A stretch of 64,000 bases of DNA from a virus. Below are positions 33,166 through 63,901 of this stretch, piece by piece (positions within the stretch are counted from its first letter, which is position 1; the number at the start of each line of letters is the position of its first letter). The position numbers were made by a program, and so were the translations under genes. The stretch is from positions 114,944 to 178,943 of IMG/VR virus record IMGVR_UViG_3300007512_000001, one strand, 5' to 3'. The notes beneath the pieces were generated by a model that saw only the letters and a list, made by a program, of their open reading frames with translations, searched no databases and was not told the DNA's origin.

Positions 33166-33768
33166 ATGAAAAGTTTAAAACAATACATTACAGAAGCAAA
33201 AACAGATTATCCTTTTAGATTGAAGTTTGCTGTAGATATTACAGACGAACACTTAGATCGCCTAGAAGGATGTTTGAATAGATACGGCGTTAAAAGCGTA
33301 TCTAAAGCAAACAAAACAATTATGCAAAAACATCCAATGGATTTTGGTAATTTAGGAGCTGGTGAAATTTATATTGTAGATATTGTATTAGAATATCCTA
33401 CTACTCCCAACGTATTACAAAATTATATTCATAGCATGTTAGGAATTCCTGAAAGTCATATTGTTGTTCGTAGTCCAGATCATCCAGAAGAAGTTCAAAA
33501 TGACAAAGACCAAAAGGAACTAGACGAAAAGGATCCAGATGCTAAACCAGAATCACTATTAGATAGTGATTATCCAGAATCAGAAGGCGACTTACCTGCT
33601 GGACAAGAACACACAGATAAGATGCTTGCAGATGAAGATGAAAAACGCAAAGGTAGATTGTTTGATATGGTTAATTTTGCAAAAGATCCAAGTAGTGAAA
33701 TTGAGCACGAGCCGGACGAATTTTTGAAAGCACCGATGGGTACTACATCACCAGTAGGAACTAATTAA
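33166..33768 (+). CDS. Putative internal head protein with capsid-targeting N-terminus
   Basis: A 200-residue acidic protein. The first residues MKSLKQYITEA closely parallel the T4 internal-protein targeting peptide MKTYQEFIAEA, with a predicted prohead-protease cut after Glu10 (ITE/A). After that, FRLKFAVDITDEHLDRLEGC to ~105 (YIHSMLGIPESHIVVRSPDH) looks like a small alpha/beta domain. The rest is acidic and probably disordered (DKDQKELDEKDPDAKPES...). It lies between the terminase subunits with a late promoter upstream. Inference: packaged into the head and perhaps ejected with the DNA; otherwise a scaffold component. Confidence 0.7.
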   Translation: MKSLKQYITEAKTDYPFRLKFAVDITDEHLDRLEGCLNRYGVKSVSKANKTIMQKHPMDFGNLGAGEIYIVDIVLEYPTTPNVLQNYIHSMLGIPESHIVVRSPDHPEEVQNDKDQKELDEKDPDAKPESLLDSDYPESEGDLPAGQEHTDKMLADEDEKRKGRLFDMVNFAKDPSSEIEHEPDEFLKAPMGTTSPVGTN

Positions 33769-33769
33769 A

Positions 33770-34564
33770 ATGGAAACAAAATATAACCTAAATATTACAA
33801 CATCTGGAGAGAACGGTGATAACGCAACAACATCAATTTCTACTACAGATGCAAACAAACTAGCAGAGTTGCTAAATTTAGCAGGCATGAGCCAATCTCA
33901 TCCTGTAGCATTAAATGTAAGTCCTGAAGAAGAGTATGATGCTCCATGCCCAGACTGTGGTGATTCACCATGTGGTTGCGGTATGACAGAAGGCGAAAGT
34001 TGGGATAATGAGCCAGAAGCAACAGTTCATTCACCAGAAGAAGTTTTTAAAGTAGGTGACGACTTGCATAGGGTAAAGAAAAGTTATCCTCCAGTAGCAG
34101 GCGGTGACAATCCAATGGCATTGGAATCTGCAGAAAATAAATTACGCAATGCGTATGACGAGTTTATTGCTGAAAGTGAAGAAGAAGTAGAAGAAGTTCA
34201 TGAAACACCCGCTGGATGGGCCAAAAGTAAAGAAATAGATAACATGGAGTTTCCTACTAAAGGTGTAAAACCGGGTTGGAAAGAAGATGCAATCAAAGCC
34301 GCAATAAAAGTAGTACACGATATGGCAGGCGATTACGATGGTGCGTGGGCTGCAATTAAAGATGCTTATGGTGAAGATGTTTTAAATGATGATGCTGTAC
34401 AAGATGCATTATATAAAGCAAATGTAGAAGAAGATGTTAATCGTATTAGACAACTAGCAGGTTTGGATGAAGCCGCAGGAAAACGGAAAAAGCCTGAAGA
34501 GGCAAAAAAAGCACCAGAAAAGAAAGACGACGGTAAAGGAAAAACCTGGGGTGTAGTAGCCTAA
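33770..34564 (+). CDS. Conserved unknown protein with Cys-rich CPDCGDSPCGCG motif
   Basis: A 264-residue acidic protein. A likely metal-binding knuckle, APCPDCGDSPCGCG, lies at residues ~58-71. A helical region EDAIKAAIKVVHDMAGDYDG then AWAAIKDAYGEDVL follows (~178-215), and then DVNRIRQLAGLDEA, an ending I associate with marine T4-like head-associated proteins. The C-terminus is Lys-rich. It starts one base after the previous stop, and its stop directly abuts the frameshifted small gene. The role is unknown; the location argues for a structural or packaging function. Confidence 0.65.
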   Translation: METKYNLNITTSGENGDNATTSISTTDANKLAELLNLAGMSQSHPVALNVSPEEEYDAPCPDCGDSPCGCGMTEGESWDNEPEATVHSPEEVFKVGDDLHRVKKSYPPVAGGDNPMALESAENKLRNAYDEFIAESEEEVEEVHETPAGWAKSKEIDNMEFPTKGVKPGWKEDAIKAAIKVVHDMAGDYDGAWAAIKDAYGEDVLNDDAVQDALYKANVEEDVNRIRQLAGLDEAAGKRKKPEEAKKAPEKKDDGKGKTWGVVA

Positions 34565-38619: not shown

Positions 38620-39564
38620 ATGGCATCATTAGCAGATATACGAGCTAAGCTACAGGCTCAAGAAAACAAAGGTAGCGGTTCTTCATTTATTGGCGACAAC
38701 GCCATTTATCCTTTCTGGAATATTCCAGAACAATCCACAGCAGTACTAAGGTTTTTACCCGACGGTAATGAAAGTAATCCGTTTTTCTGGGTAGAAAGAC
38801 TTATGATTAGACTTCCATTTAGCGGAATTAAAGGCGATAGTGATTCTAAGAATACTTTCGTACAGGTTCCGTGTATGGAAATGTGGAACGAAACTTGTCC
38901 AGTTTTGACCGAGGTTCGCACTTGGTTTAAGGACCCAGCACTAGAAGATATGGGTCGTAAGTACTGGAAAAAGCGTTCTTACATTTTCCAAGGATTTGTA
39001 TTGGATAGTCCACTTGCTGAGGATACTGTTCCGGAAAATCCAATTCGTCGTTTTATTATTGGACCACAAATTTTCCAATTACTTAAAGCGGCATTGATGG
39101 ATCCTGAACTGGAGGAACTTCCAACTGATTATACAAATGGATTGGACTTCCGTTTGACAAAAACAACTAAAGGTGGATATGCTGATTATTCAACATCTAC
39201 TTGGGCAAGACGCGAACGTGCTCTTGACAAAGAAGAAATGGATGCAATCTCACAATATGGCTTGTTTGATCTTAGCAGTTTCCTTCCTAACAAACCGGAT
39301 GAAACGGCGGTCAATGTTATTAAAGATATGTTTGAAGCATCTGTAGACGGAAAGCAGTATGATCCAGATCTTTATGGACAATATTTCCGTCCAGCAGGTA
39401 TGTACAAACCAGAAACAACTTCCAACGATTCAAAAGCAACCACTACCGCTTCTGAACCTAAGGAAGAAAAACAAGAATCGGTAGTCTCCGAAACTCCGCA
39501 GAGTAGTGGTGGTTCCAAAGCAGAGGATATTTTAGCAACTATCCGTGCTAGACAGGGCCAGTAA
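38620..39564 (+). CDS. 32: Single-stranded DNA-binding protein gp32
   Basis: Coats ssDNA in replication and recombination, together with uvsX/uvsY and gp41/gp61. The 314-residue product (T4: 301) has an N-terminal self-association region (MASLADIRAKLQAQE), an OB-fold core (FWNIPEQSTAVLRFLPDGNE, FFWVERLMIRLPFSGIKG) and an acidic Ser/Glu-rich C-terminal tail that ends in a short helix. In T4 four ligands bind zinc. Here the matching region PCMEMWNETCPVL has only C85 and C93, so the zinc site seems incomplete. It is driven by its own early promoter and followed by a terminator. Confidence 0.93.
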   Translation: MASLADIRAKLQAQENKGSGSSFIGDNAIYPFWNIPEQSTAVLRFLPDGNESNPFFWVERLMIRLPFSGIKGDSDSKNTFVQVPCMEMWNETCPVLTEVRTWFKDPALEDMGRKYWKKRSYIFQGFVLDSPLAEDTVPENPIRRFIIGPQIFQLLKAALMDPELEELPTDYTNGLDFRLTKTTKGGYADYSTSTWARRERALDKEEMDAISQYGLFDLSSFLPNKPDETAVNVIKDMFEASVDGKQYDPDLYGQYFRPAGMYKPETTSNDSKATTTASEPKEEKQESVVSETPQSSGGSKAEDILATIRARQGQ

Positions 39565-39576
39565 TATAAAGTAATA

Positions 39577-39606
39577 GGGGCGGGTTAACGCTCGCCCCGT
39601 CTTTAT
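39577..39606 (+). terminator. Hairpin terminator after gp32
   Basis: GGGGCG/CGCCCC (39577-39582 with 39593-39598), loop containing GTTAAC, followed by GTCTTTATT. Confidence 0.75.
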
Positions 39607-39660
39607 TCTATTAGAGGAAAATTATAAGGATGGAAACATACTAATGAAACAAAAGAAAAG

Positions 39661-39777
39661 ATGCGAGGCCCAAGGGGACCCATGCCTGAATGGCGTAAAG
39701 AAATACAAAGAAAAAATGCATCAAAAGGTTGGGAGACACGTAGAAAAAGATATGGCGAAAACGGGAGGAAGAAATGA
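39661..39777 (+). CDS. 38-aa basic peptide, possible remnant of a NUMOD3-type protein
   Basis: ATG 39661 to TGA 39777, overlapping the uvsX ATG as ATGA. It reads MRGPRGPMPEWRKEIQRKN then ASKGWETRRKRYGENGRKK. The frame is open further back to 39628 and encodes KHTNETKEKMRG, which resembles the H-S-x-E-T-K-x-K-(I/M) core of NUMOD3 DNA-binding repeats in homing nucleases. No start codon lies in that upstream part. An ATG at 39630 with an upstream AGAGG is one frame off and stops after four codons. It is either a shortened real gene or a frameshifted remnant. Confidence 0.5.
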   Translation: MRGPRGPMPEWRKEIQRKNASKGWETRRKRYGENGRKK

Positions 39778-40844
39778 GACCGTTTGACGTGGCAAAATTT
39801 AGAAAAGATATTACAAAGTCTATTGACGGCTTGTCAGTAGGCTTTAGCGATCCTACCGATTGGATTTCTGTAGGTAATTATTGTTTAAACTATCTTGTCA
39901 GTGGAGACTTTTACAAAGGCATTCCATTAGGAAGAGTCACTGTATTAGCAGGAGAATCAGGCTCAGGCAAATCTTATATTGCTTCTGGGAATATCGTTAA
40001 AGAAGCACAAAAACAAGATATTTTTGTAGTTTTGATCGACTCTGAATCTGCTCTAGATAAGGAGTGGTTAGAAAGACTAGGTGTTGATACTAGCGAAGAA
40101 AAACTACTTCGCTTGTCTATGAGTATGATTGATGACGTTGCTAAAACTATCAGCGTCTTTATGAAAGACTACAAGACAATGGAAGAGGAAGAACGCCCTA
40201 AAGTTCTTTTTGTTATTGACTCTTTAGGTATGTTACTTACTCCCACAGACGTAGATCAATTTGATAAAGGTGATCTAAAAGGTGATATGGGCCGCAAACC
40301 TAAAGCATTAACCGCACTTGTTCGCAATTGCGTTAATATGTTTGGCGGACACAATGTAGGATTAGTAGCAACAAACCACACTTATGCATCTCAAGATATG
40401 TTTGATCCAGATGATAAGATTTCAGGGGGTCAAGGCTTTATCTACGCAAGTTCTATCGTTATTGCTATGAAAAAGTTAAAACTTAAAGAAGATGCAGATG
40501 GCAACAAAACATCACAAGTCTATGGTATTAGGGCAGGTTGTAAGGTAATGAAAACACGCTATGCCAAACCATTTGAAGGTGTTCAAGTTAAAATTCCTTA
40601 TGAAACAGGCATGGATCCTTATAGTGGCTTGATAGAAATGTTTGAAGCACAAGGCTGGGTTAAGAAAACCGGCAATAGACTTGGTTATACATGTAAAGAT
40701 GGTACTGAAATTCTAGAGTTTAGAAAAGGATGGACTGGCGAGAAATTAGATCGCGTTATGCGTGATGTAATGTCAGGTGGTATTGGCGAAAATGTAGAAT
40801 CAGACCCCGATGTAGAATTTGAAGAAACTGAAACAGAAGCATAA
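39774..40844 (+). CDS. uvsX: RecA-like recombinase UvsX
   Basis: Strand-exchange protein of T4-type recombination-dependent replication, 356 residues (T4: 391). Walker A AGESGSGKSY is at ~59-68 and LFVIDSLGML is the Walker B region (~141-150). Then VGLVATNHTYASQDMFDPDD and ISGGQGFIYASSIVI (loop L2 region) follow, with KTRYAKPFEGVQVKIPYETG. It is translationally coupled to the 38-aa peptide upstream (ATGA). It is followed by a small acidic gene and uvsY, so the recombination set is intact. Confidence 0.96.
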   Translation: MRPFDVAKFRKDITKSIDGLSVGFSDPTDWISVGNYCLNYLVSGDFYKGIPLGRVTVLAGESGSGKSYIASGNIVKEAQKQDIFVVLIDSESALDKEWLERLGVDTSEEKLLRLSMSMIDDVAKTISVFMKDYKTMEEEERPKVLFVIDSLGMLLTPTDVDQFDKGDLKGDMGRKPKALTALVRNCVNMFGGHNVGLVATNHTYASQDMFDPDDKISGGQGFIYASSIVIAMKKLKLKEDADGNKTSQVYGIRAGCKVMKTRYAKPFEGVQVKIPYETGMDPYSGLIEMFEAQGWVKKTGNRLGYTCKDGTEILEFRKGWTGEKLDRVMRDVMSGGIGENVESDPDVEFEETETEA

Positions 40845-40847
40845 ATA
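40840..40847 (+). promoter_or_regulatory. Late-type promoter CATAAATA at uvsX stop
   Basis: Overlaps the uvsX stop codon and lies 27 bases before the GTG at 40875. The predicted start is near 40853, ahead of a TGAGGA site. Confidence 0.5.
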
Positions 40848-40874
40848 TCCTTAACTTTAACTTGAGGAATATTT

Positions 40875-41102
40875 GTGGATAAAATTGTTTTAGTTCATAC
40901 ATGGGAAATGTTGAAAGCATACATTCCGAAAAAAGAGTTACCACTTGCCGCAGAACAACTAGTAAACTATCTAACTGATGAAGATATGTCTGAAGTAATA
41001 GATGAATTAGCAAACAACTGTCCAACTATTGCACAACTTTTAAATGATTTAGATGAAGAAGATTACGAAGATGAAGATTATGACGAGGACACAGAGTGGT
41101 GA
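40875..41102 (+). CDS. Small acidic protein between uvsX and uvsY
   Basis: 75 residues from a GTG start, with TTGAGGA 5-11 bases upstream. The first ~50 residues are helical (DKIVLVHTWEMLKAYIPKKE). The last ~20 are almost entirely Asp/Glu (EEDYEDEDYDEDTEW), a DNA-mimic-like tail. The position suggests a regulator of the recombination machinery, but no family is recognised. Confidence 0.6.
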   Translation: MDKIVLVHTWEMLKAYIPKKELPLAAEQLVNYLTDEDMSEVIDELANNCPTIAQLLNDLDEEDYEDEDYDEDTEW

Positions 41103-41108
41103 CTTATA

Positions 41109-41561
41109 GTGTGGTATAATAAAATTGTCCAAGACATGGGTAATATACCGGATGCTCTAGAATATTTCGAGAACGAATTAACTGGTGCTAAAAAAGACGT
41201 CAAAATTTCTGGCGTCTTAGAAAAAAATGCAACAGCGTTACCAGGTATTGTAGAGCATCGCTTTAATCAACTTCAAGAGTTAGAAGCAATCCTGCAACAT
41301 CTTAATATTCAACTACGCAAACTTAGACGTAAACACTTTAAAAAATACTTAGAAAGTTATAATAGAGCCTTGAGTGCTCGTGACGCTGAAAAATATGTAG
41401 ACGGCGAAGATGAAGTGGTTGATCTAGAAACTGTTATTAATGAAGTTGCATTGGTTCGCAACAAATGGTTAGGAGTTATTAAAGGACTTGATGTTAAGCA
41501 ATTTCAGGTAAGTAATGTAATAAGACTTCGCACAGCAGGTATGGAGGATGTTACAGTATAA
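41109..41561 (+). CDS. uvsY: Recombination mediator UvsY
   Basis: Loads UvsX on gp32-coated ssDNA. The 150-residue product (T4: 137) starts with GTG 41109 and reads MWYNKIVQDMGNIPDALEYF. The central helical block (HRFNQLQELEAILQHLNIQL then RKLRRKHFKKYLESYNR) and the DAEKYVDGEDEVVDL segment match UvsY. It lies after uvsX and the small acidic gene, 6 bases from that stop. TAATG couples it to the next gene. Confidence 0.88.
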   Translation: MWYNKIVQDMGNIPDALEYFENELTGAKKDVKISGVLEKNATALPGIVEHRFNQLQELEAILQHLNIQLRKLRRKHFKKYLESYNRALSARDAEKYVDGEDEVVDLETVINEVALVRNKWLGVIKGLDVKQFQVSNVIRLRTAGMEDVTV

Positions 41562-42316
41562 TGAATAAAACACTTATATATGGTGATTTAGTCGAACAAA
41601 GAAAATCAGCCCAAGAAGTTTTCAAAGTAGTTTCTAAACAATTGTTTGAGAACATGTTGCATGTATGTGATTTTGGCTGTGGGGATGGATCTAATACAGA
41701 ATGGTGGTGTAACCAAGCATCATATGAAGAATCTGCACCATACGCTAATCACACAAAAGTTTCTGGTATTGATTTAATTGATAGGGAAACTGATAAATTT
41801 GACTTTACTTGTGGCGATATTTTAAATATGCCATACAAAGACGATGAATTTAATATTGGTTGGTGTCACTATACATTACAACAATTGAAAGACCCTATAC
41901 AAGGGTTATTAGAAATGCGTAGAGTACTTACTCCTTTTTCATTACTGTTTATAACTGTTCCACAAACATTAGATACAGAGTTTGGTAGACTAAAAACTAA
42001 ATTTGGAAGATATGATAGAAACTTTTATACCTTACCTACATTTATAAATCAGTTAGCAATAACAGGCTGGGATTGTAGAAAGGGATATTTTCTTAAAAAT
42101 TTTAATGATCGTAATATTTACGGTATTGTTAAACCCAAACAAGATTGGGAAGAACTAGATGATCCAATGGATTTAGGACCAGTAGATCTTATGGAAAGAG
42201 AAGTCTTGCCTGAAAGTACGGATGATATGATAAAAGCAAAAGGTTATTTTGACGAGTCTGCGTTAATGCTAACGTGGATGAATGGCTCAATTACTGATTA
42301 TGGAAGTAGAGTGTAA
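41561..42316 (+). CDS. SAM-dependent methyltransferase (class I)
   Basis: A 251-residue protein. The SAM loop is VCDFGCGDGSNTEWW (motif I, ~32-46). Then VSGIDLIDR (acidic residue at the end of strand 2), FTCGDILNMPYKDDEFNIGW (motif of adenine contacts, ~87-106), HYTLQQLKDPIQGLLEMRRV and SLLFITVPQ follow. It is typical of UbiE/Methyltransf_11-type enzymes. The target is unknown. TAATG overlaps couple it to both uvsY and the FkbM gene, so the methyltransferases form an operon with recombination genes. Confidence 0.85.
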   Translation: MNKTLIYGDLVEQRKSAQEVFKVVSKQLFENMLHVCDFGCGDGSNTEWWCNQASYEESAPYANHTKVSGIDLIDRETDKFDFTCGDILNMPYKDDEFNIGWCHYTLQQLKDPIQGLLEMRRVLTPFSLLFITVPQTLDTEFGRLKTKFGRYDRNFYTLPTFINQLAITGWDCRKGYFLKNFNDRNIYGIVKPKQDWEELDDPMDLGPVDLMEREVLPESTDDMIKAKGYFDESALMLTWMNGSITDYGSRV

Positions 42317-43185
42317 TGGGTTTTCCTATACTACAATGTGAAAATGTTAGAGTTAAGCCGTGTAAGCACGGAGATTTTGCATATAATATCAAAGACACAA
42401 TTGTCGGTCGTAGTTTAGATTTATACGGTGAATATGCAGAGGCAGAACTAGCATTGGCATCACAATTATTACGACCAGGTGCTAAAGTTATTGATGTAGG
42501 GGCTAATATAGGATTACATTCTGTGTTTTATTCTAGAATAGTAGGCAAGGAAGGAGAAGTATATGCTTTTGAACCAAGCCATTTAAATTATTTTTTCTTA
42601 ATGACTAATCTGACTATTAATAGTGCATTTAACGTAACGCCAGTCAAAGGAGCAGTGGGAACAAAACGGCCATTATACTTGCCATTGAATAGAGTAGATG
42701 ACGAAATGAATCATGGCGCATTAAAAACATCTGACAATGATACAGGCAATGATGTAGAACGTTGCGCGGTGTTTAATTTAGATGATATTGGTCTCGATTA
42801 TTGTAATTTGGTTAAAGTAGATGTAGAAGGTAATGAATCAGATGTTCTACATACTGGTACAAGGCTATTCTCAACTCATAGACCATTTGTTATTGCAGAA
42901 TGCCAAGAAAACCAAAAAGAATTGCTACAAACTTTTAAAGATATGGATTATGACTGTTATTGGCTTCCCTCTCCGGATTTTAATCCAGATAATTACTTTG
43001 AAAATTCTGAGTGTATTTTTGTAGATCCCACAGGTGCTGTAATCAACGTTTTTGCCCACCCTAAAGAAATTGACATCAAAATAGATAATTTGACTAAAAT
43101 CCGCAAAGTTACAGATAAGTGGAAATCTCCAAAAACCACTAAAAAATCCAAGAAAAAGACTACTAAGAAAACTAAGAAAAAGTAG
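42316..43185 (+). CDS. FkbM-family methyltransferase with lysine-rich tail
   Basis: A 289-residue protein. AKVIDVGANIGLHSVFYSRI (~56-75) is the SAM loop, EVYAFEPSHLNYFFLMTNLT the strand-2/FEP motif of FkbM enzymes, and NLVKVDVEGNESDVLHTG (~160-177) the VDVEG motif. FkbM proteins O-methylate sugars or small molecules. The last ~25 residues are mostly Lys/Thr (KTTKKSKKKTTKKTKKK), an unusual basic extension that could bind nucleic acid or an acidic surface. It starts on the stop of the previous methyltransferase. Confidence 0.9.
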   Translation: MGFPILQCENVRVKPCKHGDFAYNIKDTIVGRSLDLYGEYAEAELALASQLLRPGAKVIDVGANIGLHSVFYSRIVGKEGEVYAFEPSHLNYFFLMTNLTINSAFNVTPVKGAVGTKRPLYLPLNRVDDEMNHGALKTSDNDTGNDVERCAVFNLDDIGLDYCNLVKVDVEGNESDVLHTGTRLFSTHRPFVIAECQENQKELLQTFKDMDYDCYWLPSPDFNPDNYFENSECIFVDPTGAVINVFAHPKEIDIKIDNLTKIRKVTDKWKSPKTTKKSKKKTTKKTKKK

Positions 43186-43219
43186 CAATTAGTAAGTCAT
43201 TGATTTTATTGGCTTTTTT

Positions 43220-43287: not shown

Positions 43288-43301
43288 GAGTACAAAAAAA
43301 A

Positions 43302-43329: not shown

Positions 43330-43363
43330 GTATATATACGCTAAAGAAACAAGGAGAAACGTG

Positions 43364-44876: not shown

Positions 44877-44889
44877 CACCCGCCAAAAT

Positions 44890-52486: not shown

Positions 52487-54112
52487 TTACTTATTACGTT
52501 TGTGACTCACATTAGTAACTTTCTTCAGTAGAGGTCCCTTTTTTACAGCCAGTTTATATGTGGATTGCCCTGCTCTCGGCTGAAAATATAAAGACACCAA
52601 TACATCTTTTGGATTATTGATATCATAAACTTTAAATCCTACGTTACCCGCGTTTGTCTTATATTCCCCGACATCAAAATCTATATCTTTAAGTAGTTTA
52701 TATAAGTTTTTAAAAGAATGGACACTATAATCGCCGGTTGCCTTAAAATCAACTAACTCTACATTATCTTCTCTGGCTGCATGATATTCAACAAAGTTTA
52801 CCAGTGCTTGTATAAAATCGTATTCTGATTGTGAATCATCGTTTTTAAGCCAAATTTGTTTAATATTGTTCGCAACTGCGCTGAACATTTTTTGTATACC
52901 GGGCCGAACCTTTTTCTGGCTAGCTTGTAATTGGCTGTTTATTGCCTTTTCGATTTGATTAGAATCCATATCACTAGTGATACCAATGGAATTTAAATAC
53001 TCTTCTTTTGAAAGTATATTTTCAACATTGATATAGTTTGTACCATCGTCAAACCCTTTCCATAAAGTTATCAAATTGTTCCACAAATGATCTTTTAGTT
53101 TTTCTGCTGTTAGGTTTCCTTGTGGTTTACCAACAAGTGCTTGTTGTCCAATATCTGGATTAGTGGCTTTTAATGAAAGATTTGCATATCTAAGTTTTTT
53201 TCCGTTAGCAACTATAAATAGGTCTGCTTTAGTACCTCCTCCAGACTGCAAGGAAGCGGCACCACCTATACCGTCGGTATCTACTATAATCTCATCAACT
53301 TTGAGATTCGTTGCAAAAAATCTAGAGTATTGCGTCATTAATCGAGAATTAGCATAATTTGCAACTGCCCCAAGCAAGCCTAATAGTTTTGGATTATCTA
53401 AATGCTTCCCTTCTCCAATCGCTACTAGTTCCCTAAAAGCCTGTTCTTGAGTTTTAATTCTCCAAACAATTTTATCTTGTAAATTACTTTTATATTCTGC
53501 AGAAGCATACACCACGTCTTCTTTGTGTAATTCTTTTGAATTAATTTTTACTTCTTGACTACTACTATTATCTACTGTTAATTTTGAAATTATTTTAAGA
53601 ATGTCTTTAACTTCGATAGGCTGGACTCCGCCTTGTACACGTTTAGTAAATTTTGCTGTTAAACCTGCACCTGCCAAGGATTCTGTTAAATTACCAAAAT
53701 TTGCGATTTGATCTTTACTTTTAATACGATGTGGTTCGGCAAATTGATGATCTTTAAAGAGATTTGAAATTCTATAATTGTCTAATTGTGTATTAGTTTT
53801 AGGATCATAAACCGGTACTACCCAAGATTTACCGTCTAGATAGCCATAGAAGGATCCTGATTGAATTGACTTTAAAAGTTTACTTTGGCTGGTGGCATTT
53901 GCGTATCCAATGTATATATTATAAGGATACGTTCCGGATCTTGCTTTGGGATAATCATATTCTTGCCCACCCAAAGTAGGTGCAATTGTGCCGTCCCATG
54001 GAATCTTTCCTTTGACGCGATTTAAAAAAACATCCCATCGTTCTTCAGCAGCTTGATGGAAATCACCAAACGATAAATTTGCTTCAAATAATTTAAATTC
54101 ATTAAAACGCAT
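52487..54112 (-). CDS. Putative head-packaged protein with PD-(D/E)XK-like motif
   Basis: A 541-residue protein. The N-terminus MRFNEFKLFEA matches a capsid-targeting peptide, with a predicted cut after Glu10 (LFE/A). TLGGQEYDYPKARSGTYPYN follows. In the middle, GGGTKADLFIVANGKKLRYA then NLSLKA places D297 and S313-L-K315 as in PD-(D/E)XK-type nucleases (D-x15-SxK). The C-terminal ~200 residues are helical, ending with strands SLYFQPRAGQSTYKLAVKKG. The gene is alone on the minus strand beside two radical SAM genes. ATAAATA lies 5 bases before the ATG. Nuclease activity and packaging are inference. Confidence 0.6.
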   Translation of the reverse strand: MRFNEFKLFEANLSFGDFHQAAEERWDVFLNRVKGKIPWDGTIAPTLGGQEYDYPKARSGTYPYNIYIGYANATSQSKLLKSIQSGSFYGYLDGKSWVVPVYDPKTNTQLDNYRISNLFKDHQFAEPHRIKSKDQIANFGNLTESLAGAGLTAKFTKRVQGGVQPIEVKDILKIISKLTVDNSSSQEVKINSKELHKEDVVYASAEYKSNLQDKIVWRIKTQEQAFRELVAIGEGKHLDNPKLLGLLGAVANYANSRLMTQYSRFFATNLKVDEIIVDTDGIGGAASLQSGGGTKADLFIVANGKKLRYANLSLKATNPDIGQQALVGKPQGNLTAEKLKDHLWNNLITLWKGFDDGTNYINVENILSKEEYLNSIGITSDMDSNQIEKAINSQLQASQKKVRPGIQKMFSAVANNIKQIWLKNDDSQSEYDFIQALVNFVEYHAAREDNVELVDFKATGDYSVHSFKNLYKLLKDIDFDVGEYKTNAGNVGFKVYDINNPKDVLVSLYFQPRAGQSTYKLAVKKGPLLKKVTNVSHKRNK

Positions 54113-54127: not shown

Positions 54128-55441
54128 TTATTGCTTATGAATCTCTTCGTAGATTATAGGGAAAAGTTCTCTATAATCTGTTCCACGCCTGCGATCCAGT
54201 TCTGTTAGATATCTATGTAATTCCTGTTGTGCTTTTTTATTAGGAATATCCGACTCAATTGCTTTTTTTATTCCTTCAAGATATTCAATGACAGATTCCC
54301 TGGTTGTGCTTTCAGAATTTTCGTTTGCAATATTTATTAACATGTCAATTGATTGGTTGTATCCCCAATCTAAAATTTTCGGACCAAATATTGAAGGGTG
54401 CATCCAGTCTTTACCAGAGGCTTGCATTAAACTAATATTCATACCCCATTCCTTCCCTCTCGTAATATGTCGTTGATTCCATTCTTGATATTTTTCAATA
54501 AGATCAGGCATAGTAAAAGTAGATATAGGAGACCAACATATGTTTATTGTAGTGTCAAGTCCGGCGTCGATTATATATTTCATGTTTTTATCAAATAATT
54601 CTATATCTAGTCCATATCTTACATACTCTGCTTCCTTACCCCAACAATCAATACTGCCGACAATATGAGCATTGTGTAATCTACCCTCTTCTAGAAGTTG
54701 CTTTAATTTAATAATTTTTGGTTCTATATTATCACTTGATAGATTACTAAAAAAGAATAAATCTAAATTTTTAAATTTATCACCATTTCCTGCAATGAAA
54801 TCTAACAAACGATCAGACTGTGGTTGTATAAAGGGTTCTCCCCCTAAAATGTATAATGATCTTAGGTGCTGGCCATTTTTATCTAACCAGTCAAATACTT
54901 TATCTAAATATTTAAGTTCTTGATAATTAGGCCGGCCGGCCTTGTGGTCATCAGGATACATGAAATCATGTATGTCACCATATTTTTTGTCTTCTGCCTC
55001 CCATGTACTACTAAAATACGAACCACAATATGTACAGGATAATTGGCAAAGATTACTGAAATATATTTCAAGTTGCGTTGGAGTAACATGAACTGCATTT
55101 GGATTATCAAATAATTCAGGCGGAGATGACGGGGCAAATCCCATGTCGTCATGTAAGAGTCTATCACTCATTCCTCCTGCCTGCTCAATAACTCTACAGT
55201 GTTCGCATCCTAACTCTGGCCACTCATCGCGCAACATCTGCAATCGAGCATGTACCTTTTGATGAGTATTATGAAAATTAAAATCTTCCGTAATTGGATT
55301 ATGATCACATCTATGGCAACTTGCAGTCGTATTTGTAGTTAAAAATATGGTGCTAAGTGACCATTTTAATCTACATTGTAATTTAGACTGTTTAGTGTTA
55401 ATAATTGATCTATTGTGTACTTGATGTGCATTATCACTCAT
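54128..55441 (-). CDS. Twitch-type radical SAM protein
   Basis: A 437-residue protein. An N-terminal Cys-rich region (SCHRCDHNPIT at ~42-52, GCEHCRVIEQAGGMSDRLLH at ~77-97) precedes the SAM core. There YFSNLCQLSCTYCGSYFSST carries C132, C136 and C139, and LYILGGEPFIQPQ (~193-205) is the GGE motif. This architecture, a radical SAM with an N-terminal Cys cluster, is the twitch type that I associate with marine phages. The substrate is unknown, perhaps a peptide. Both neighbours on the minus strand (541-aa and 124-aa genes) are 5-16 bases away. Confidence 0.85.
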   Translation of the reverse strand: MSDNAHQVHNRSIINTKQSKLQCRLKWSLSTIFLTTNTTASCHRCDHNPITEDFNFHNTHQKVHARLQMLRDEWPELGCEHCRVIEQAGGMSDRLLHDDMGFAPSSPPELFDNPNAVHVTPTQLEIYFSNLCQLSCTYCGSYFSSTWEAEDKKYGDIHDFMYPDDHKAGRPNYQELKYLDKVFDWLDKNGQHLRSLYILGGEPFIQPQSDRLLDFIAGNGDKFKNLDLFFFSNLSSDNIEPKIIKLKQLLEEGRLHNAHIVGSIDCWGKEAEYVRYGLDIELFDKNMKYIIDAGLDTTINICWSPISTFTMPDLIEKYQEWNQRHITRGKEWGMNISLMQASGKDWMHPSIFGPKILDWGYNQSIDMLINIANENSESTTRESVIEYLEGIKKAIESDIPNKKAQQELHRYLTELDRRRGTDYRELFPIIYEEIHKQ

Positions 55442-55446
55442 TTTAC

Positions 55447-55821
55447 CTATTTTACCTTTTGGACTAATTGAATATTTCTACGTTTTGTTCTGCGTTGAGC
55501 AAGTTCATTCATACTAACATATGGGCCATGGACTATTTCTACATCTTTCGCCATAAATGTTTTAATATAAGGTTTGAAAGGTACAAATTCTTTTTTAAGA
55601 AAAACGTTAATAGGAAATAATCTATTGGATTCCCACCACCAGACATCTCCCAATTCTAAAAATTTTTGCTTTACTTTAATGCTAGGAAGCGCATTATAGT
55701 CATATATACTAATAATTGATGCATCTTTATTTAAAATAATGCCAATAAACTCTTTATCAACATACTTGATATAACTTATAAACGGGTATTTCTCGGTTAG
55801 TTCTTGATAAATGTTAGACAT
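55447..55821 (-). CDS. Small conserved unknown protein beside radical SAM gene
   Basis: 124 residues. SNIYQELTEKYPFISYIKYV then EFIGIILNKDASIISIYDYN, VWWWESNRLFPINVFLKKEF and EIVHGPYVSMNELAQRRTKR form an alpha/beta domain with a basic C-terminal end. I know similar proteins in marine T4-like phages with no role assigned. It precedes the radical SAM gene by 5 bases on the same strand, so it could be its partner or substrate. Confidence 0.65.
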   Translation of the reverse strand: MSNIYQELTEKYPFISYIKYVDKEFIGIILNKDASIISIYDYNALPSIKVKQKFLELGDVWWWESNRLFPINVFLKKEFVPFKPYIKTFMAKDVEIVHGPYVSMNELAQRRTKRRNIQLVQKVK

Positions 55822-55823
55822 AA

Positions 55824-55831
55824 AATAAATA
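55824..55831 (+). promoter_or_regulatory. Late promoter AATAAATA
   Basis: 19 bases before the ATG at 55851, in the divergent gap. The predicted start is near 55837. Confidence 0.5.
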
Positions 55832-55850
55832 TAGTAAAGGATTTTATAAA

Positions 55851-56621
55851 ATGCTAGTTACTACTGTCTATTTATATGACCAAATTATTAATTTGAAAAT
55901 TAAGGTTGACACTGACAAACAACATTGGGGGTATGAAATGTATAATCATCCGATTAAATTATACAAAGGTATTGATAACACAATACAAATACAATTGAAA
56001 AACGATAACCAAAAAACTTTAACCATTACAGACAAGACGATTACGTTTAGTATACTAAACTCGTCGGACGGAACAAGTGTGCTTTTAAATAAAACAGCAA
56101 CGATTGTAGATGGTATTAATGGCAAGGCAAAGGTTACTATTACAGAAGGTGATTTGTTAAATTTAGATAGCCAATATCTAAATTATTCAGTGAAGGTTGT
56201 AGACGGTGAAGAAAATCAAATGATTGGGTACGTAGACGGCGCATATGATGTTATTGGCCAATTACAAATCTTAGATGGAGTGTTCCCAGACATAAAAGAA
56301 AGTCTAGAATTAAAATTAGCAGACTTCCAGGAAGCAGGCGGTACATATACCAGTGATCCTTTAGTGGCAGAGTCAAAATTAAACCAAAATACAGGATTAC
56401 ATACTGCCGCATTTTATGTAAATGGTTACAGTGGTGATATCAAAGTACAAGCAACATTAAATGATAATGTGGCGCCTGCCGATTATTTTGACATTAAAAC
56501 TGTAACTTTGGCATCAAAAACCGGCATTGCATATACTAACTGGAATGGAGTTTATAACAGAGTACGATTTGTACACACACCAACTGCAGGTAGTATGGAA
56601 AAAATTCTTTACCGCTCATAA
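55851..56621 (+). CDS. Baseplate/structural beta-domain protein (BppU-N-like)
   Basis: 256 residues. NHPIKLYKGIDNTIQIQLKN then TLTITDKTITFSILNSSDGT and TATIVDGINGKAKVTITEGD (residues ~28-105) resemble the N-terminal domain of upper baseplate (BppU-type) proteins. The C-terminal half is a second beta domain with NTGLHTAAFYVNGYSGDIKV and ends RFVHTPTAGSMEKILYRS. It is likely a virion protein anchoring fibres. It is placed between the small minus-strand gene and the B12-type radical SAM. Confidence 0.65.
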   Translation: MLVTTVYLYDQIINLKIKVDTDKQHWGYEMYNHPIKLYKGIDNTIQIQLKNDNQKTLTITDKTITFSILNSSDGTSVLLNKTATIVDGINGKAKVTITEGDLLNLDSQYLNYSVKVVDGEENQMIGYVDGAYDVIGQLQILDGVFPDIKESLELKLADFQEAGGTYTSDPLVAESKLNQNTGLHTAAFYVNGYSGDIKVQATLNDNVAPADYFDIKTVTLASKTGIAYTNWNGVYNRVRFVHTPTAGSMEKILYRS

Positions 56622-56626
56622 CATTG

Positions 56627-56633
56627 TTAAATA
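56627..56633 (+). promoter_or_regulatory. Late promoter TTAAATA
   Basis: 22 bases before the ATG at 56656. The predicted start is near 56639. Confidence 0.45.
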
Positions 56634-56655
56634 ATAATGTAATATATAATACGTT

Positions 56656-58398
56656 ATGAAAGTGCAGTTTATTAATTTACATACAGGCACGGATCAGTCG
56701 AGATACACCGGCCCCATAATCAGTTTAGTTTCTTATAGTTTAAGATCTTTTTATAAAAAGACAGGAAAACATTATAAAAATTATACCTGGTTACCGAATG
56801 AGAATGGGTTCAGCCCCAACACAAAAGGTAACCAAGTTAATAAAGCGTTTAACGTAATCAAAGAAAAAAAACCTGATATTGTTTGTCTTACCCTCTATCT
56901 TTGGAATTCTAATAATTCGATTCGATTAGCAAAGAAAATTAAAAAGGTCTTTCCTAATTGTATTATAATAGCAGGTGGTCCTGAAGTTGAACATGTTTTG
57001 GGCACAGAATACGCAAAAAAGAATCCTTATTTTGACTATGTTTGTTATGGAGATGGTGAAGAAACATTCCAAATGCTATTAGATAGTTTTATTACTCCAA
57101 TAAACGAGCAGACTATTCCTAATTTAATAACTAAAGAGTTTAAAACCCGGTATAAGATTTTTAAATTTAAAGATCATCTAGCATATAATCCTTACTTGGA
57201 TTTAAAACAAGATCTACTACAAGAGTATGAAGTTGCAAAAAAGAATAGAGTAAAATGGTTAGAGGCGAAAGGCCTGGATGCAAAACAAAATGACAGTAAT
57301 TCGGATTCGTTTATATTTATTCCATGGGAAAGAGTCCGAGGATGTCCGTATGCTTGTACTTTTTGCGACTGGTCTTCTGGGTTACATCATAAAGTTAATG
57401 TAGCTACATTGGATTGGAGGGAAGAAATAAAATTTTTATCAAAACTTAAATATGTAGTTCTTATGATTACGGATGCAAATGTGGGAATACTTAAAGATGA
57501 CGTAGATGTAGTTAAGTTTGGCCATGATAATTTTAGTAATGATTACCATTATTTTGAAAATCCTAGTAATGCAAAATTACATAAAGATCGTGTATTAGAA
57601 CTTGAGTTATATAAAGCCAAAAATTCAAAAACACCCAAAGGCAGCATATCTAAAGTTTCTTTGCAACACATAGATAAAGAAGTTTTGGATAATATTAATA
57701 GACCAAGTATTACTTGGGAAGAAAATAAAGAACTTATAAAAACATTAAAAAAAGCAGGACAATATATAAAAGCAGAGGTTATAAATGGCTTACCAGGCGC
57801 CACCTTAGAAAAAAATATATATATGTTTAAAGAATTTTCTCTCGTTAATATAGACTTGGTATTACTTCATCCCTGGATAATACTTCCAAATTCACCAGCC
57901 TATGATATTAATTATCAAAAAAAACACAATTTATCTAAGATAAGATTTATTAAATTTAGTAATTCAAGTTATTCGTTTGGCGAGGAAATTCCATTAAATG
58001 GCATTGATAGCACATATAAAAGTATTATAAACAAAGATGTAGATTTAGATTTGATAGATGTAAATTTAATAATGGATACAAATTACATACAAGATTATTT
58101 TTTATCTAGGAACATATCGGCACTGTATAACCATTACCAATTGCAGAGGCAACAAAATAGCTATGACTTGGCACCATTTTCGTATTATCTAGATAAGCAT
58201 TATTATTTTCTAAAGTTTATGGCAGACCAATTAGTAAAAAAGTTAAACTTTTTCAATGAAAAGTATGGATTTTTTATAGACGTCATTGAAATTAATAATA
58301 AATTATATAGTCATTCATTTGTTATTGAACAATATCTTTATCATTCTTTTTCCCAGGAAGGTATAGCAAATATTACTAATTCATTTGCTATTGAATAA
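56656..58398 (+). CDS. B12-binding-domain radical SAM enzyme
   Basis: A 580-residue protein. The N-terminal ~150 residues (KPDIVCLTLYLWNSNNSIRL, FPNCIIIAGGPEVEHVLG, FDYVCYGDGEETFQMLL) form a B12-binding-type Rossmann domain. I do not see the DxHxxG motif, so cobalamin may be bound without His. The radical SAM core has WERVRGCPYACTFCDWSSG with C230, C234 and C237, and later YIKAEVINGLPGATLEKNIY. This class often methylates or rearranges lipids, peptides or sugars. It ends 49 bases before the primase start, with an early promoter in between. Confidence 0.85.
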   Translation: MKVQFINLHTGTDQSRYTGPIISLVSYSLRSFYKKTGKHYKNYTWLPNENGFSPNTKGNQVNKAFNVIKEKKPDIVCLTLYLWNSNNSIRLAKKIKKVFPNCIIIAGGPEVEHVLGTEYAKKNPYFDYVCYGDGEETFQMLLDSFITPINEQTIPNLITKEFKTRYKIFKFKDHLAYNPYLDLKQDLLQEYEVAKKNRVKWLEAKGLDAKQNDSNSDSFIFIPWERVRGCPYACTFCDWSSGLHHKVNVATLDWREEIKFLSKLKYVVLMITDANVGILKDDVDVVKFGHDNFSNDYHYFENPSNAKLHKDRVLELELYKAKNSKTPKGSISKVSLQHIDKEVLDNINRPSITWEENKELIKTLKKAGQYIKAEVINGLPGATLEKNIYMFKEFSLVNIDLVLLHPWIILPNSPAYDINYQKKHNLSKIRFIKFSNSSYSFGEEIPLNGIDSTYKSIINKDVDLDLIDVNLIMDTNYIQDYFLSRNISALYNHYQLQRQQNSYDLAPFSYYLDKHYYFLKFMADQLVKKLNFFNEKYGFFIDVIEINNKLYSHSFVIEQYLYHSFSQEGIANITNSFAIE

Positions 58399-61650: not shown

Positions 61651-61882
61651 AATATCGCCGTACGTAGACTCAAAAGTTTTAACTAGGCGGCCGCCCCCAC
61701 GTTATAAAAGATTCCCACCAGGTAAAACAAGTGGTATTGTAGATCAAATGTCCGGCGAATTAGAAAACGTTGTAGATGATTGGATTAAAATAGATTGGGA
61801 CGATGTTGATGAAGCAACTAAAAAACGTTTTAGTGATGCTATAACAGAATTATTGGATATTGTTAATAATGAAGATATCTGA
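61637..61882 (+). CDS. 81-aa unknown protein
   Basis: Starts with GTG 61637: MKLSEISPYVDSKVLTRRPP then RYKRFPPGKTSGIVDQMSGE and an acidic helical end (DWIKIDWDDVDEATKKRFSD). A longer reading from 61607 lies within the previous gene and looks unnatural. The N-terminus contains LSE at residues 3-5, too short to call a capsid-targeting peptide. It overlaps both neighbours by 14 bases. Confidence 0.6.
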   Translation: MKLSEISPYVDSKVLTRRPPPRYKRFPPGKTSGIVDQMSGELENVVDDWIKIDWDDVDEATKKRFSDAITELLDIVNNEDI

Positions 61883-63212
61883 TCTACACGAAGAACGACC
61901 AGCAAGAGCAAAACGTCGCAAGGACCGTGCACCACGCAAAGACCGCGAAGGAAATCTTATTAACGAATCTAAATGGCTTTTTGAAAAAGAAGACCGCACA
62001 CATATGACACACCTTGAAGACTTGGTATTTACGCAAGGATACAAAGGCGCTAAACAAGCATTAAACTATTTGGCCAACGTTGCTGGTATGCTTTCCGGAC
62101 ACGGAGGCAAACGTACCAAAATAACAACTAAGTGGGATGGTGCTCCTGCTATTGTTGCTGGCACTGATCCAAAGGACGGTAAGTTTTTTGTAGCAACAAA
62201 GCACGGCTTTTTTAATAAAAATCCTAAATTAAACAAAACACCTAAAGATATTGACAAGAACCATTCTGATGCTGGTTTAGAAAAAGGTAAGACAAGAGCA
62301 GGCCTGCGTAATAAGTTTAAGATGGCTTTAAAAGAATTGCCAAAATTAAACTTTGATGGCATACTGCATGGCGACTTTATGTTTGCTAAAGGTGATTTAA
62401 AAACAGTAACTATTGAAGGGGAAAAATATATTGCTTTTAGACCACAAGAAATTACATATGCTGTCCCTGTCGGCAGTGAATTAGCACAGCAATTACTGGC
62501 CGCAGACTTTGGTATAGTATGGCATACGCAATATACTGGCGGGCCTGAGATTAGTGACATGCAAACACAATATGGTGTAATAGCACCAGAAGGTAACAAA
62601 AAAGTTTGGATGGATGATGCTACGTATAAAGATTTAACAGGCGTTGCTACATTAACTGCAAGAGAAACAGATTCTGTAAGGCGCGGTGTTGAGAAGATGA
62701 GTGATATTTTATCTAAAACAAATGCCTCAAAATTCAACACAATGTTGAAAAATGAAGAGTTTATGAAATATATTCCCATCTTTATTAACGAAAAGATTCG
62801 CCAAGGAGAAGGACAAGTATCCAATGCTACAAATTTCTTGCAAGACTTTATTAACTATTATGATGATCGTATGCAAGCCGAAATTGATAAACTAAAAACT
62901 GGTATTGAAGGGCCTGCAGGACAGGCGCGTGTACAAAAAATAGAAGCAAACAAACAGTTTATCGAAGATAACAGTAATACATTATTAGCAATACTTGGCA
63001 TATATAAACAAATCGTACAGATTAAAATGATCTTAGTAAACAAATTAAACAAAGTAGAAGGTATTGGAACATTTTATAAAACAGATGGCGGCTACGAGGT
63101 AGCAGACCCCGAGGGTTTTGTAGCAATTGATAGAATAGGTAATGCCGTAAAATTAGTAGATAGAATGGAGTTTTCAAGAAGAAACTTTTTAAGTCAAAAG
63201 GAGTGGGGTTGA
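61869..63212 (+). CDS. Ligase/nucleotidyltransferase-like protein with capsid-targeting-like N-terminus
   Basis: 447 residues from ATG 61869. The first residues MKISDLHEE end in LHE, a possible prohead-protease site. A basic stretch (RPARAKRRKDRAPRKDREG) follows. ITTKWDGAPAIVAG has K88-W-D-G, like motif I K-x-D-G of DNA/RNA ligases. GILHGDFMF (~164-172) fits motif III (L-x-G-E/D), FRPQEITYAVPV (~190-201) motif IV-like, and NKKVWMD (~245) might be the motif V Lys region. The C-terminus is helical. If active it would form a covalent nucleotide at K88. Other explanations are a degenerate fold. Confidence 0.6.
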   Translation: MKISDLHEERPARAKRRKDRAPRKDREGNLINESKWLFEKEDRTHMTHLEDLVFTQGYKGAKQALNYLANVAGMLSGHGGKRTKITTKWDGAPAIVAGTDPKDGKFFVATKHGFFNKNPKLNKTPKDIDKNHSDAGLEKGKTRAGLRNKFKMALKELPKLNFDGILHGDFMFAKGDLKTVTIEGEKYIAFRPQEITYAVPVGSELAQQLLAADFGIVWHTQYTGGPEISDMQTQYGVIAPEGNKKVWMDDATYKDLTGVATLTARETDSVRRGVEKMSDILSKTNASKFNTMLKNEEFMKYIPIFINEKIRQGEGQVSNATNFLQDFINYYDDRMQAEIDKLKTGIEGPAGQARVQKIEANKQFIEDNSNTLLAILGIYKQIVQIKMILVNKLNKVEGIGTFYKTDGGYEVADPEGFVAIDRIGNAVKLVDRMEFSRRNFLSQKEWG

Positions 63213-63901
63213 TGGGTTTTATTAAAGATTTAACAGAAGCACGAGCACTACGCACCCAGCGTGGTTTGAATCTTAGTGCTGAACAAGTGGCAGAAAGTAT
63301 TTACTTGACGGTATTATCATTGCAGGCAATGCGATTTGATCCCAGCACAGCCGCGCAGGCATCAGAATATGCTAGAAAAACTTTGCAATATCAAGATTTC
63401 AGTAATATTAGATCAACAGCAACAGATTTACACAACTGGGTAGCTGTTTTTAGTAATCCAGAAAGATACGCAAATCAAATTGGCCCAGTTGGTAGGGCAA
63501 GTATGCCTTTATTACAATTTAAAAGGTATCTCAGAGATGTGGCACAAGGTAAGGCTAATCCGAACTTCGACAAACAATTTTTAATGAGTTTAGAGCGTAA
63601 TTTAGGTATTAGAAATGGGCAGTATAGTGCTGTAAGAAGATTGTTAAGTGATTGGAATAGATTATATGGTACTGAGCGCAAGCAAGGTACTACTAGATTG
63701 TTACAGGCATTGAGGGCCAAAACACCTAAAAGTGATTTACGCGGCCCATATGAAGGATTTATGCGTAAGGGTGGATATGAAGATAAAAGTGCTAAAGATC
63801 CAGAAAAAACAGGCATTAGTACACCAGCAAAAATTGCACTAGCGACAGCCGGTGGTTATGTGGTAGGCAAAGGAATAGGAAAGTGGCTAGCCAATAAATA
63901 A
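63212..63901 (+). CDS. Putative internal head protein with capsid-targeting N-terminus
   Basis: 229 residues from ATG 63212 (TGATG overlap). MGFIKDLTEARALRTQRG looks like a capsid-targeting peptide, with a cut after Glu9 (LTE/A). The rest is helical and basic: AEQVAESIYLTVLSLQAMRF, AQASEYARKTLQYQDFSNIR and DWNRLYGTERKQGTTRLLQA. A C-terminal ATAGGYVVGKGIGKWLANK helix could insert in a membrane. Basic composition plus targeting start fits an internal protein bound to DNA in the head. It is inferred from sequence pattern only. Confidence 0.65.
   Translation: MGFIKDLTEARALRTQRGLNLSAEQVAESIYLTVLSLQAMRFDPSTAAQASEYARKTLQYQDFSNIRSTATDLHNWVAVFSNPERYANQIGPVGRASMPLLQFKRYLRDVAQGKANPNFDKQFLMSLERNLGIRNGQYSAVRRLLSDWNRLYGTERKQGTTRLLQALRAKTPKSDLRGPYEGFMRKGGYEDKSAKDPEKTGISTPAKIALATAGGYVVGKGIGKWLANK

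What the first reader, a model, noticed from the sequence alone, without database searches (positions are those of the whole stretch)
33166..63901. Five genes share a capsid-targeting-like N-terminus ending in (L/I)xE
Seen: MKSLKQYITE/A (33166), MRISELLLE/K (34565, split gene), MRFNEFKLFE/A (52487 gene, minus), MKISDLHE/E (61869), MGFIKDLTE/A (63212). T4 internal proteins begin MKTYQEFIAE/A and are cut there by gp21; two of the five put the cut at exactly residue 10. Otherwise the five proteins look unrelated. Inference: this phage packages a set of different proteins, several enzyme-like, into the head for possible ejection into the host.
Basis: partly seen in the sequence, partly recalled or inferred. 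Interest (0 to 1): 0.78.

Follow-up and report, generated by a model that had tools for sequence, protein, structure and literature searches.

The report
Capsid-loading tags on phage proteins
This marine T4-like phage carries, at the start of several unrelated proteins, what looks like the short removable address tag that phage T4 uses to load proteins into its head, and comparison with relatives suggests that many aquatic T4-like phages load enzyme-like proteins this way.

Summary
The five N-termini are in the sequence as described; the gene at 34565 is out of frame here, and an intact copy exists elsewhere. In one genome the motif is only a modest excess (6 of 182 genes, about 1 expected), and a loose form is no commoner than in unrelated phages. 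Relatives give the strong evidence. The genome encodes a T4-type prohead protease, and its major capsid protein has LTE|A at T4's cut position. In DUF6267 proteins (gene 61869), 54 of 61 distinct short prefixes before the domain hold [LI]xE; shuffle mean 12.2. In the family of gene 52487, 12 of 13 short prefixes hold it and 0 of 5 members with almost no prefix do. So the tag is an optional module. A distant homologue of 33166 is in CBB virions; the cyanophage cytidylyltransferase GC190, MKxFxAFLxE|A in 80 of 80 fetched homologues, is in S-SM1 virions. Best reading: T4-type capsid-targeting propeptides on varied cargo. Loading is likely but not shown for this phage; ejection is untested. For 61869 the family puts the cut after E39, not E8.

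The parts
33166..33768 (+). 200-aa protein, phrog_14802 (virion structural protein); tag MKSLKQYITE|A = 33166-33195
   Evidence: phrog_14802 E 5.3e-22; homologues in jumbo T4-like phages 31-35% identical start MNKLQKILTE|L or MKDLNTILTE|S; CBB_210 in virions, 13 peptides, 60.5% coverage
34565..34609 (+). Start of a small gene, (V)RISELLLE|K, frame closed after 14 codons in this record
   Evidence: intact in L016; related short genes MLINEVLLVE|K, MLIYEILLLE|E and, more distantly, MLLAELLTNE, MLIADLLINE in relatives
52487..54112 (-). 541-aa protein of a family with invariant E144, TK-x-D297, S313-x-K315; tag MRFNEFKLFE|A = 54083-54112
   Evidence: Alignment A2; tag in front of the domain in 12 of 13 short-prefix members; relatives MRLKEFNLTE|K, MKYHEFFISE|S; model pLDDT 70.1
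61869..63212 (+). 447-aa DUF6267 protein (KWDG at residues 88-91); N-terminus MKISDLHE|E (61869-61892); family-supported cut KWLFE39|K (61869-61985)
   Evidence: PF19782 315.9 bits; E39 invariant in A4; prefix statistics of the family
63212..63901 (+). 229-aa protein, no Pfam or PHROG family; tag MGFIKDLTE|A = 63212-63238
   Evidence: E9 invariant, residue 7 L/I, residue 10 A/S, residue 8 variable in 7 distinct homologues; distant homologues in Atu_ph07, Phosso and SCTP-2
726..1898 (+). gp23 major capsid protein; cut site KGYLTE41|AATAG aligned with T4 E65
   Evidence: PF07068 E 1.2e-99; alignment
1..694 (+). 3' part of the scaffold (gp22-like) gene, G000:114537-115637, which starts before the window
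   Evidence: Position between the protease and gp23 genes and composition; phrog_10922, unknown function; not tested further

Best explanation
The tags are T4-type capsid-targeting propeptides. As each protein is made, its 8-20 residue N-terminus (typically M-K/R-x-aromatic-x-x-aromatic-L/I-x-E) binds the scaffold core of the growing prohead. The phage's gp21-type serine protease then cuts after L/I-x-E, as it does in the major capsid protein, freeing the mature protein inside the head, where the DNA is packaged around it. The tag behaves as a module gained, lost or exchanged in front of unrelated domains, so a phage lineage can change its internal cargo. Here the cargo would include a conserved virion protein (33166), a DUF6267 protein with a KxDG motif, a possibly nuclease-like protein, a helical protein, and a methyltransferase encoded elsewhere in the genome. 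Shown here: motif, module behaviour, protease and shell-cut match. Shown by others: virion presence of one homologous and one analogous protein. Inferred: binding to the core, cleavage and loading in this phage. Guessed: ejection and action in the host.
For: Rules for T4: residues 4 and 7 matter for targeting, 8 and 10 for cutting; gp21 cuts after L/I-x-E (PMC9026906). Own gp21: PF03420. gp23 has L-x-E at the column of T4 E65 in 11 of the 12 genomes scanned; syn9 gave no gp23 hit. DUF6267: 54 of 61 distinct prefixes hold [LI]xE, shuffle mean 12.2, maximum 22; strict form 42 of 61, mean 1.2, maximum 6. 52487 family: 12 of 13 short-prefix members have it, 0 of 5 with 10 residues or fewer; L314 and L311 have the same domain with and without the tag. 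GC190: 80 of 80 keep F4, F7, L8, E10, A11, and residue 9, the x, is the most variable of the 45 listed; in S-SM1 virions. 33166: E10 kept at 31-35% identity; CBB_210 in virions. 63212: residue 8, the x, varies while L/I7 and E9 stay. Near DUF6267, other families: 17 of 412 N-termini canonical against 0 of 1123 internal methionines.
Against: No peptide data for this phage. The loose motif is as common in stretches of unrelated phages (4 of 269) as in T4-like genomes (41 of 3732); the canonical form occurs in 2 of 269 control proteins, both T5. DUF6267 of P-HM2, P-SSM2, S-SM1 and syn9 has no such tag; 7 of 61 prefixes lack [LI]xE; the HTVC008M cytidylyltransferase-like protein starts MKTLKELLRKK, with no LxE. 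HTVC008M and DLP_6 have no canonical tag under my gene starts. In three of the window's N-termini residue 7 or its equivalent is K or D, unlike T4. Prefixes within a family share descent, so shuffle counts overstate independence. GC190 homologues are 74% identical or more, so many other positions are invariant too.
Confidence: 0.75

Rival explanations
1. The N-termini are prohead-protease propeptides of structural or core proteins that help build the head and are trimmed in place; they are not cargo meant for the host.
For: 33166 and its homologues are annotated virion structural proteins and lie among head and tail genes. T4 gp24, a shell protein, also has a 10-20 residue N-terminal propeptide (PMC5694885, passages seen).
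Against: Tagged relatives include a cytidylyltransferase-like protein, a P-loop kinase and a methyltransferase, and the tag is optional within families, which fits cargo better than essential structure.
Confidence: 0.25
2. Ordinary N-termini: short amphipathic helices that happen to contain L/I-x-E, kept as part of the fold, with no targeting or cutting.
For: Loose pattern equally common in unrelated phages. In the 52487 model residues 2-11 are drawn as a helix (low confidence).
Against: The tag is absent as a unit from homologues whose domain starts at once; the x residue is the variable one; [LI]xE and strict-form counts far exceed shuffles; the residues match T4's and the phage's own shell cut.
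Confidence: 0.1
3. A sorting signal of another kind: the N-terminus recruits the proteins to the tail, the membrane or the replication complex, and resemblance to T4 propeptides is convergent.
For: DUF6267 lies near recA/uvsX and primase-helicase genes in Melnitz and HTVC008M; cleavage was not seen.
Against: It needs a separate reason for matching the T4 rules, with free position -1 and A/S/G favoured at +1, and for GC190 being in virions.
Confidence: 0.06

Closest known systems
T4 capsid-targeting sequences of internal proteins IPI, IPII, IPIII (and the Alt propeptide), cut by gp21
   Same: N-terminal, about 10 residues, aromatic/hydrophobic at -6 and -3, L/I-x-E cut, followed by A/S/G; on mutually unrelated proteins; phage encodes a Peptidase_S77
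   Different: Cargo families differ (DUF6267, 52487 family, GC190, kinase, methyltransferases); in 61869 the conserved cut is at residue 39; packaging and cutting not demonstrated here
SPN3US and related giant-phage head propeptides
   Same: N-terminal propeptides of ejection/head proteins removed by a prohead protease (PMC5694885, passages seen)
   Different: Most are over 100 residues long in SPN3US; the tags here are short like T4's
Cyanophage T4-GC190 cytidylyltransferase (S-SM1_190)
   Same: Tagged MKKFSAFLNE|A and detected in virions
   Different: Not reported as a capsid-targeted protein in the sections read; no homologue found among this genome's called genes (phmmer)
Phage P1 Dar proteins
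   Same: Recalled as head-packaged counter-defence proteins; papers PMC9024508 and PMC12810830 seen only in search listings
   Different: Different phage type; tag rules not compared here

Membership tests
T4-type capsid-targeting sequence | Located at the very N-terminus, about 7-20 residues | tested here: met
   33166, 52487, 63212; for 61869 the family-supported cut is at residue 39, longer than usual
T4-type capsid-targeting sequence | Ends in L/I-x-E | tested here: met
   All five named N-termini; conserved in relatives
T4-type capsid-targeting sequence | Hydrophobic or aromatic residues at positions 4 and 7 | tested here: inconclusive
   Met by 33166 (L4, Y7); not by 52487 (N4, K7), 63212 or the 61869 start (D at -3); met by 42 of 61 distinct DUF6267 prefixes in the strict form
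T4-type capsid-targeting sequence | Same phage encodes a gp21-type prohead protease | tested here: met
   PF03420, 82.8 bits against cut-off 27
T4-type capsid-targeting sequence | Same cut motif in the phage's shell protein | tested here: met
   gp23 LTE|A at the column of T4 E65
T4-type capsid-targeting sequence | Carried by otherwise unrelated proteins | tested here: met
   No BLASTP match below E 0.66 between different proteins
T4-type capsid-targeting sequence | Removed by cleavage in the virion | not testable with these tools
   No peptide data
T4-type capsid-targeting sequence | Sufficient to bring a protein into the head | not testable with these tools
   Needs an experiment
DUF6267 (PF19782), gene 61869 | Profile match above the curated cut-off | tested here: met
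   315.9 bits against 27
phrog_14802 virion structural protein, gene 33166 | Profile match over most of the length | tested here: met
   E 5.3e-22, residues 1-159 of 200
PD-(D/E)XK nuclease, gene 52487 | Acidic residue two before the catalytic lysine (D/E-x-K; motif recalled) | tested here: not met
   The family has S313-x-K315 with E144 and D297 invariant; serine in place of D/E
PD-(D/E)XK nuclease, gene 52487 | Fold | tested here: inconclusive
   Best re-aligned PDB chains are ACE1 (Cas4 family) and HhaI, both Z 4.2; no Foldseek PDB match with E 0.001 or less
Covalent nucleotidyltransferase (ligase-type), DUF6267 | KxDG motif and fold | tested here: inconclusive
   K88-W-D-G invariant in A4; no ligase among PDB sequence matches; fold not predicted

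The most novel reading that the evidence does not exclude
The T4 head-loading tag is a general address code of aquatic T4-like phages. Besides DUF6267, GC190 and the 52487 family, 16 further BLAST-separable families next to DUF6267 carry the canonical tag, among them a P-loop kinase and HAD-like proteins. Reading N-termini in front of known domains would then list the enzymes these phages carry in the particle and may inject with their DNA: nuclease-like, ligase-like, kinase, nucleotidyltransferase and methyltransferase proteins acting in the first minutes of infection.
Probability: 0.55. Interest if true: 0.85.

Novelty: new member of a known kind. Interest (0 to 1): 0.7.

Why it matters
What marine T4-like phages carry into the cell besides DNA is, to my knowledge, largely unknown, and many candidate proteins are annotated 'hypothetical'. 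If the tag is a reliable address, a simple comparison of N-termini across homologues predicts the internal cargo of uncultured phages, points to a role for families such as DUF6267, and gives a direct test (virion N-terminal peptides). It would also explain why a cyanophage cytidylyltransferase turned up in a virion proteome.

Tried and rejected
Single-genome statistics: loose regular expressions gave modest excesses and did not separate T4-like phages from unrelated controls; not used as proof. One search also prints a comparison against '0 of 269' controls; the true control count is 2 of 269, and the corrected test, 17 of 412 against 2 of 269, gives p = 0.008.

One search, a wider and looser tally (177 of 2989 distinct proteins against 36 of 11863 internal methionines), is dominated by the query families (GC190 65, DUF6267 43) and is not used as evidence.

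AlphaFold2 of the 63212 protein: pLDDT 43.2, not used. Foldseek of the 52487 model: no PDB match at E 0.001 or less; in the viral library two matches, both uncharacterised cyanophage proteins (ACG-2014f and S-RIM8). PDB sequence searches with A2 and A4: nothing significant. PADLOC: no family for 7 proteins. NCBIfam: none at E 0.1 for the five window proteins given. Phage-collection search with the 52487 protein: no match. Whether DUF6267 (GC71) was seen in S-SM1 virions could not be read: that table is a supplement and none could be opened. ADP-ribosyltransferase reading of the Atu_ph07 array: a YRG motif seen by eye; Pfam gave nothing for three of its proteins; not claimed.

Search bias: the patterns that fetched 33166, 52487 and 63212 homologues included parts of the tag, so those sets lean towards it. 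The sets for GC190, the wide 52487 family and DUF6267 were found by patterns from outside the tag; they are the best 80 of 126, all 43, and the best 80 of 593 or more. Rows left out: of 80 DUF6267 loci, 9 without the domain motif or marker, 2 cut by contig ends and 5 with prefixes over 26 residues. One search used the 49 of 155 own genes with at least two distinct diverged homologues. Gene starts are from my own simple caller.

Literature: the combinations searched listed no title about capsid-targeting sequences in marine T4-like phages; 'DUF6267' gave 0 papers. Only open-licence PMC papers are held and only listings were seen for most. Papers seen: PMC9026906 (passages, sections 9 and 10), PMC5259590 (passages, section 24), PMC6102473 (passages, section 29), PMC3037559 (passages, section 26), PMC2984593 and PMC5694885 (passages).
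Full report
What is there. The window is the last 64,000 bases of a 178,943-base viral record (G000). It is a T4-like phage: gp23 in the window (PF07068, E 1.2e-99) and, just outside it, a T4-type prohead protease (Peptidase_S77, PF03420, E 2.9e-23). The frame at 34565 starts with GTG and closes after 14 codons; contig L016, with an identical 33166 protein, has it intact. The four intact proteins are unrelated by BLASTP.

Is it more than chance in this genome? Only moderately. Of 182 called genes, 6 have M[KRG]...[LI]xE with E at 8-10 against about 1 expected. A loose pattern is not commoner at N-termini of T4-like genomes (41 of 3732) than of stretches of lambda, T7, T5, SPO1 and Mu (4 of 269). 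With the canonical T4 form (F/Y/L at -6, F/Y at -3) the 12 genomes give 17 of 3732 N-termini against 7 of 12,576 internal methionines, and the controls 2 of 269 against 0 of 1209. The motif in one genome is a lead, not proof.

The rule it should obey. In T4 the first ten residues of IPIII suffice for head loading; residues 4 and 7 matter for targeting, 8 and 10 for cutting; gp21 cuts after L/I-x-E (PMC9026906, sections 9 and 10 read). gp23 has L-x-E at the column aligned with T4 E65 in 11 of the 12 genomes scanned (T4 included; syn9 gave no gp23 hit); in this phage it is KGYLTE|A. My scan recovers the two T4 proteins that start MKTYQEFIAEA, presumably IPII and IPIII, whose propeptides the review calls identical.

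DUF6267 (gene 61869). Eighty relatives were fetched with patterns from the domain only; 69 were usable, 64 had a prefix of 26 residues or fewer before the THLEHLED-like motif, and 61 prefixes were distinct. Of these 54 hold [LI]xE; shuffling each prefix gives a mean of 12.2 and at most 22 in 2000 rounds. The stricter form is met by 42 of 61 against a mean of 1.2 and at most 6. E is at residue 9 or 10 in 35 of the 54. Examples: MKKFSTYLAE|AKN, MQSFKQYLSE|ARN, MNDFNNYITE|ASAKN, MKFQEFLTE|AKEGKN. In P-HM2, P-SSM2, S-SM1 and syn9 the protein has no such tag, so the tag is optional. In the window protein the residue aligned with these cut sites is E39 (KWLFE|K), invariant in the six-row alignment A4; MKISDLHE|E belongs to an N-terminal extension whose start differs among close relatives (MKIFEFLPE, MKLFEVQGE, MKISDLNE) and may or may not be a second site.

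The 52487 protein. It has no match in the named-phage collection, but profile searches link it to a family with invariant E144, T294-K295-x-D297, S313-x-K315 and Q323. Of 25 aligned members, 13 have an 18-28 residue prefix and 12 of these hold [LI]xE (the other VxE); 5 have 10 residues or fewer and none holds it; 7 have a longer N-terminal region, of which two (the window protein, E10, and L306, E8) have [LI]xE in the first 12 residues. The clearest pair is MKTFKTYLEE|AAPPKISANRGDVAEVILGAA (L314) and MTIDANRGNIAEVILGAA (L311): the same domain with and without the tag. The AlphaFold2 model is fair (pLDDT 70.1; the first 23 residues are low confidence). Re-aligned PDB chains put a Cas4-family protein and HhaI endonuclease first at Z 4.2, too weak to assign the fold, and the canonical acidic residue of the (D/E)xK motif is a serine. 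'Nuclease-like' is an inference.

The 33166 protein. Homologues in jumbo T4-like phages are 31-35% identical and start MNKLQKILTE|L (GAP32, CBB) or MKDLNTILTE|S (Vibrio phage 2.275.O). CBB_210 was detected in virions with 13 unique peptides and 60.5% coverage (PMC5259590 section 24 read).

The 63212 protein. Seven distinct homologues, 56-81% identical, keep L/I at 7, E at 9 and A/S at 10, while residue 8 is T, H, F or Y. A distant relative in Atu_ph07 (gp64, 29% identity, matched from residue 22 on) has QLNE|S in the stretch before it, as judged by eye. That gene lies in CDS 31-76, where 29 proteins were found in virions (PMC6102473 section 29 read); whether gp64 is one of them could not be read.

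An independent tagged enzyme. The cyanophage cytidylyltransferase T4-GC190 (PF01467; GC number) starts MKxFxAFLxE|A in 80 of 80 homologues fetched without using the tag (best 80 of 126, 74% identical or more). Many other positions are invariant too, but residue 9, the free x of LxE, is the most variable of the 45 listed. It was detected in S-SM1 virions (PMC3037559 section 26 read). Against generality, the HTVC008M cytidylyltransferase-like protein has no LxE at its start.

Neighbouring genes. Near DUF6267, after removing DUF6267, GC190 and 52487 homologues (87 of 499 proteins dropped), 17 of 412 N-termini have the canonical tag against 0 of 1123 internal methionines; they fall into 16 families by BLAST, some of which may be distant relatives of each other. 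Examples are a P-loop kinase (PF06414, PF13671, above cut-off) and HAD-like proteins (PF00702, PF06941, PF03767, below cut-off). Against the unrelated-phage controls (2 of 269) the excess has p = 0.008.

Mechanism. Most likely these are capsid-targeting propeptides: they dock the protein on the scaffold core, gp21 cuts after L/I-x-E, and the mature protein stays in the head. Shown here: motif, module behaviour, protease and matching shell cut; shown by others: virion presence of one homologous and one analogous protein. Inferred: docking, cutting and loading in this phage. Untested: ejection and function in the host. My confidence is highest for 33166, then 52487, 61869 and 63212, and lowest for the broken 34565.

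Known or new. Capsid-targeting sequences are known, and the review already suggests that T4-like phages use them to load various proteins. My searches listed no paper recognising them on DUF6267, GC190 or in marine T4-like phages. I class the window proteins as new members of a known kind, and keep the broader reading in the section on the most novel reading.

Noticed in passing
G000:12896-13807 (outside the window; L001:12896-13807): 303-aa methyltransferase (PF13489, 34.3 bits) starting MKLKEYIKE|K; a relative in G001 starts MNLLEYIRE|R. A sixth tagged gene of this phage.
   Followed up: partly
T4 (NC_000866) 18966-19130, minus: A 54-residue T4 frame starts MKTFKEFIKE|D, a canonical tag on a small protein in T4 itself.
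   Followed up: no
Atu_ph07 (NC_042013) about 39,500-50,600; L066: Tandem array of proteins starting MRWHQLTE|A, MRWDQLTE|A, MKWEQLTE|S and similar, inside the CDS 31-76 virion-protein cluster; one is joined to a P-loop kinase-like domain.
   Followed up: partly
L042:16109-17158 and L042:15348-16106: Downstream of the 63212 homologue, past the end of this window's record, a relative has two more tagged genes: MRATEFINE|A with a ParB-like nuclease match (PF08857) and MKISEIITE|N.
   Followed up: partly
KVP40 39187-39834 (L143:1187-1834): 215-aa protein, phrog_14016, starting MKQFCNFLAE|V; looks methyltransferase-like by eye.
   Followed up: no
phrog_455 (764 positions): DUF6267 (61869) matches positions 26-340 and GC190 matches 343-724 of the same PHROG profile, so the two tagged proteins seem fused in some phages.
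   Followed up: no
window 33770-34564 and GAP32_207, CBB_213: The window's 33770 protein has no tag, while possibly homologous GAP32_207 and CBB_213 start MKKQINE|A and the Vibrio phage 2.275.O protein MTKQINE|A; CBB_213 is in virions. Homology judged by eye only.
   Followed up: no
L367:758-1558: Tagged protein MTVRFKSFITE|S next to DUF6267 with GDIE...FNIEIK, which reads by eye like a D...ExK nuclease motif; Pfam gave nothing.
   Followed up: no
window 29999-32623 and 54128-58398: Several proteins with CxxxCxxC-like motifs that look like radical-SAM enzymes by eye.
   Followed up: no
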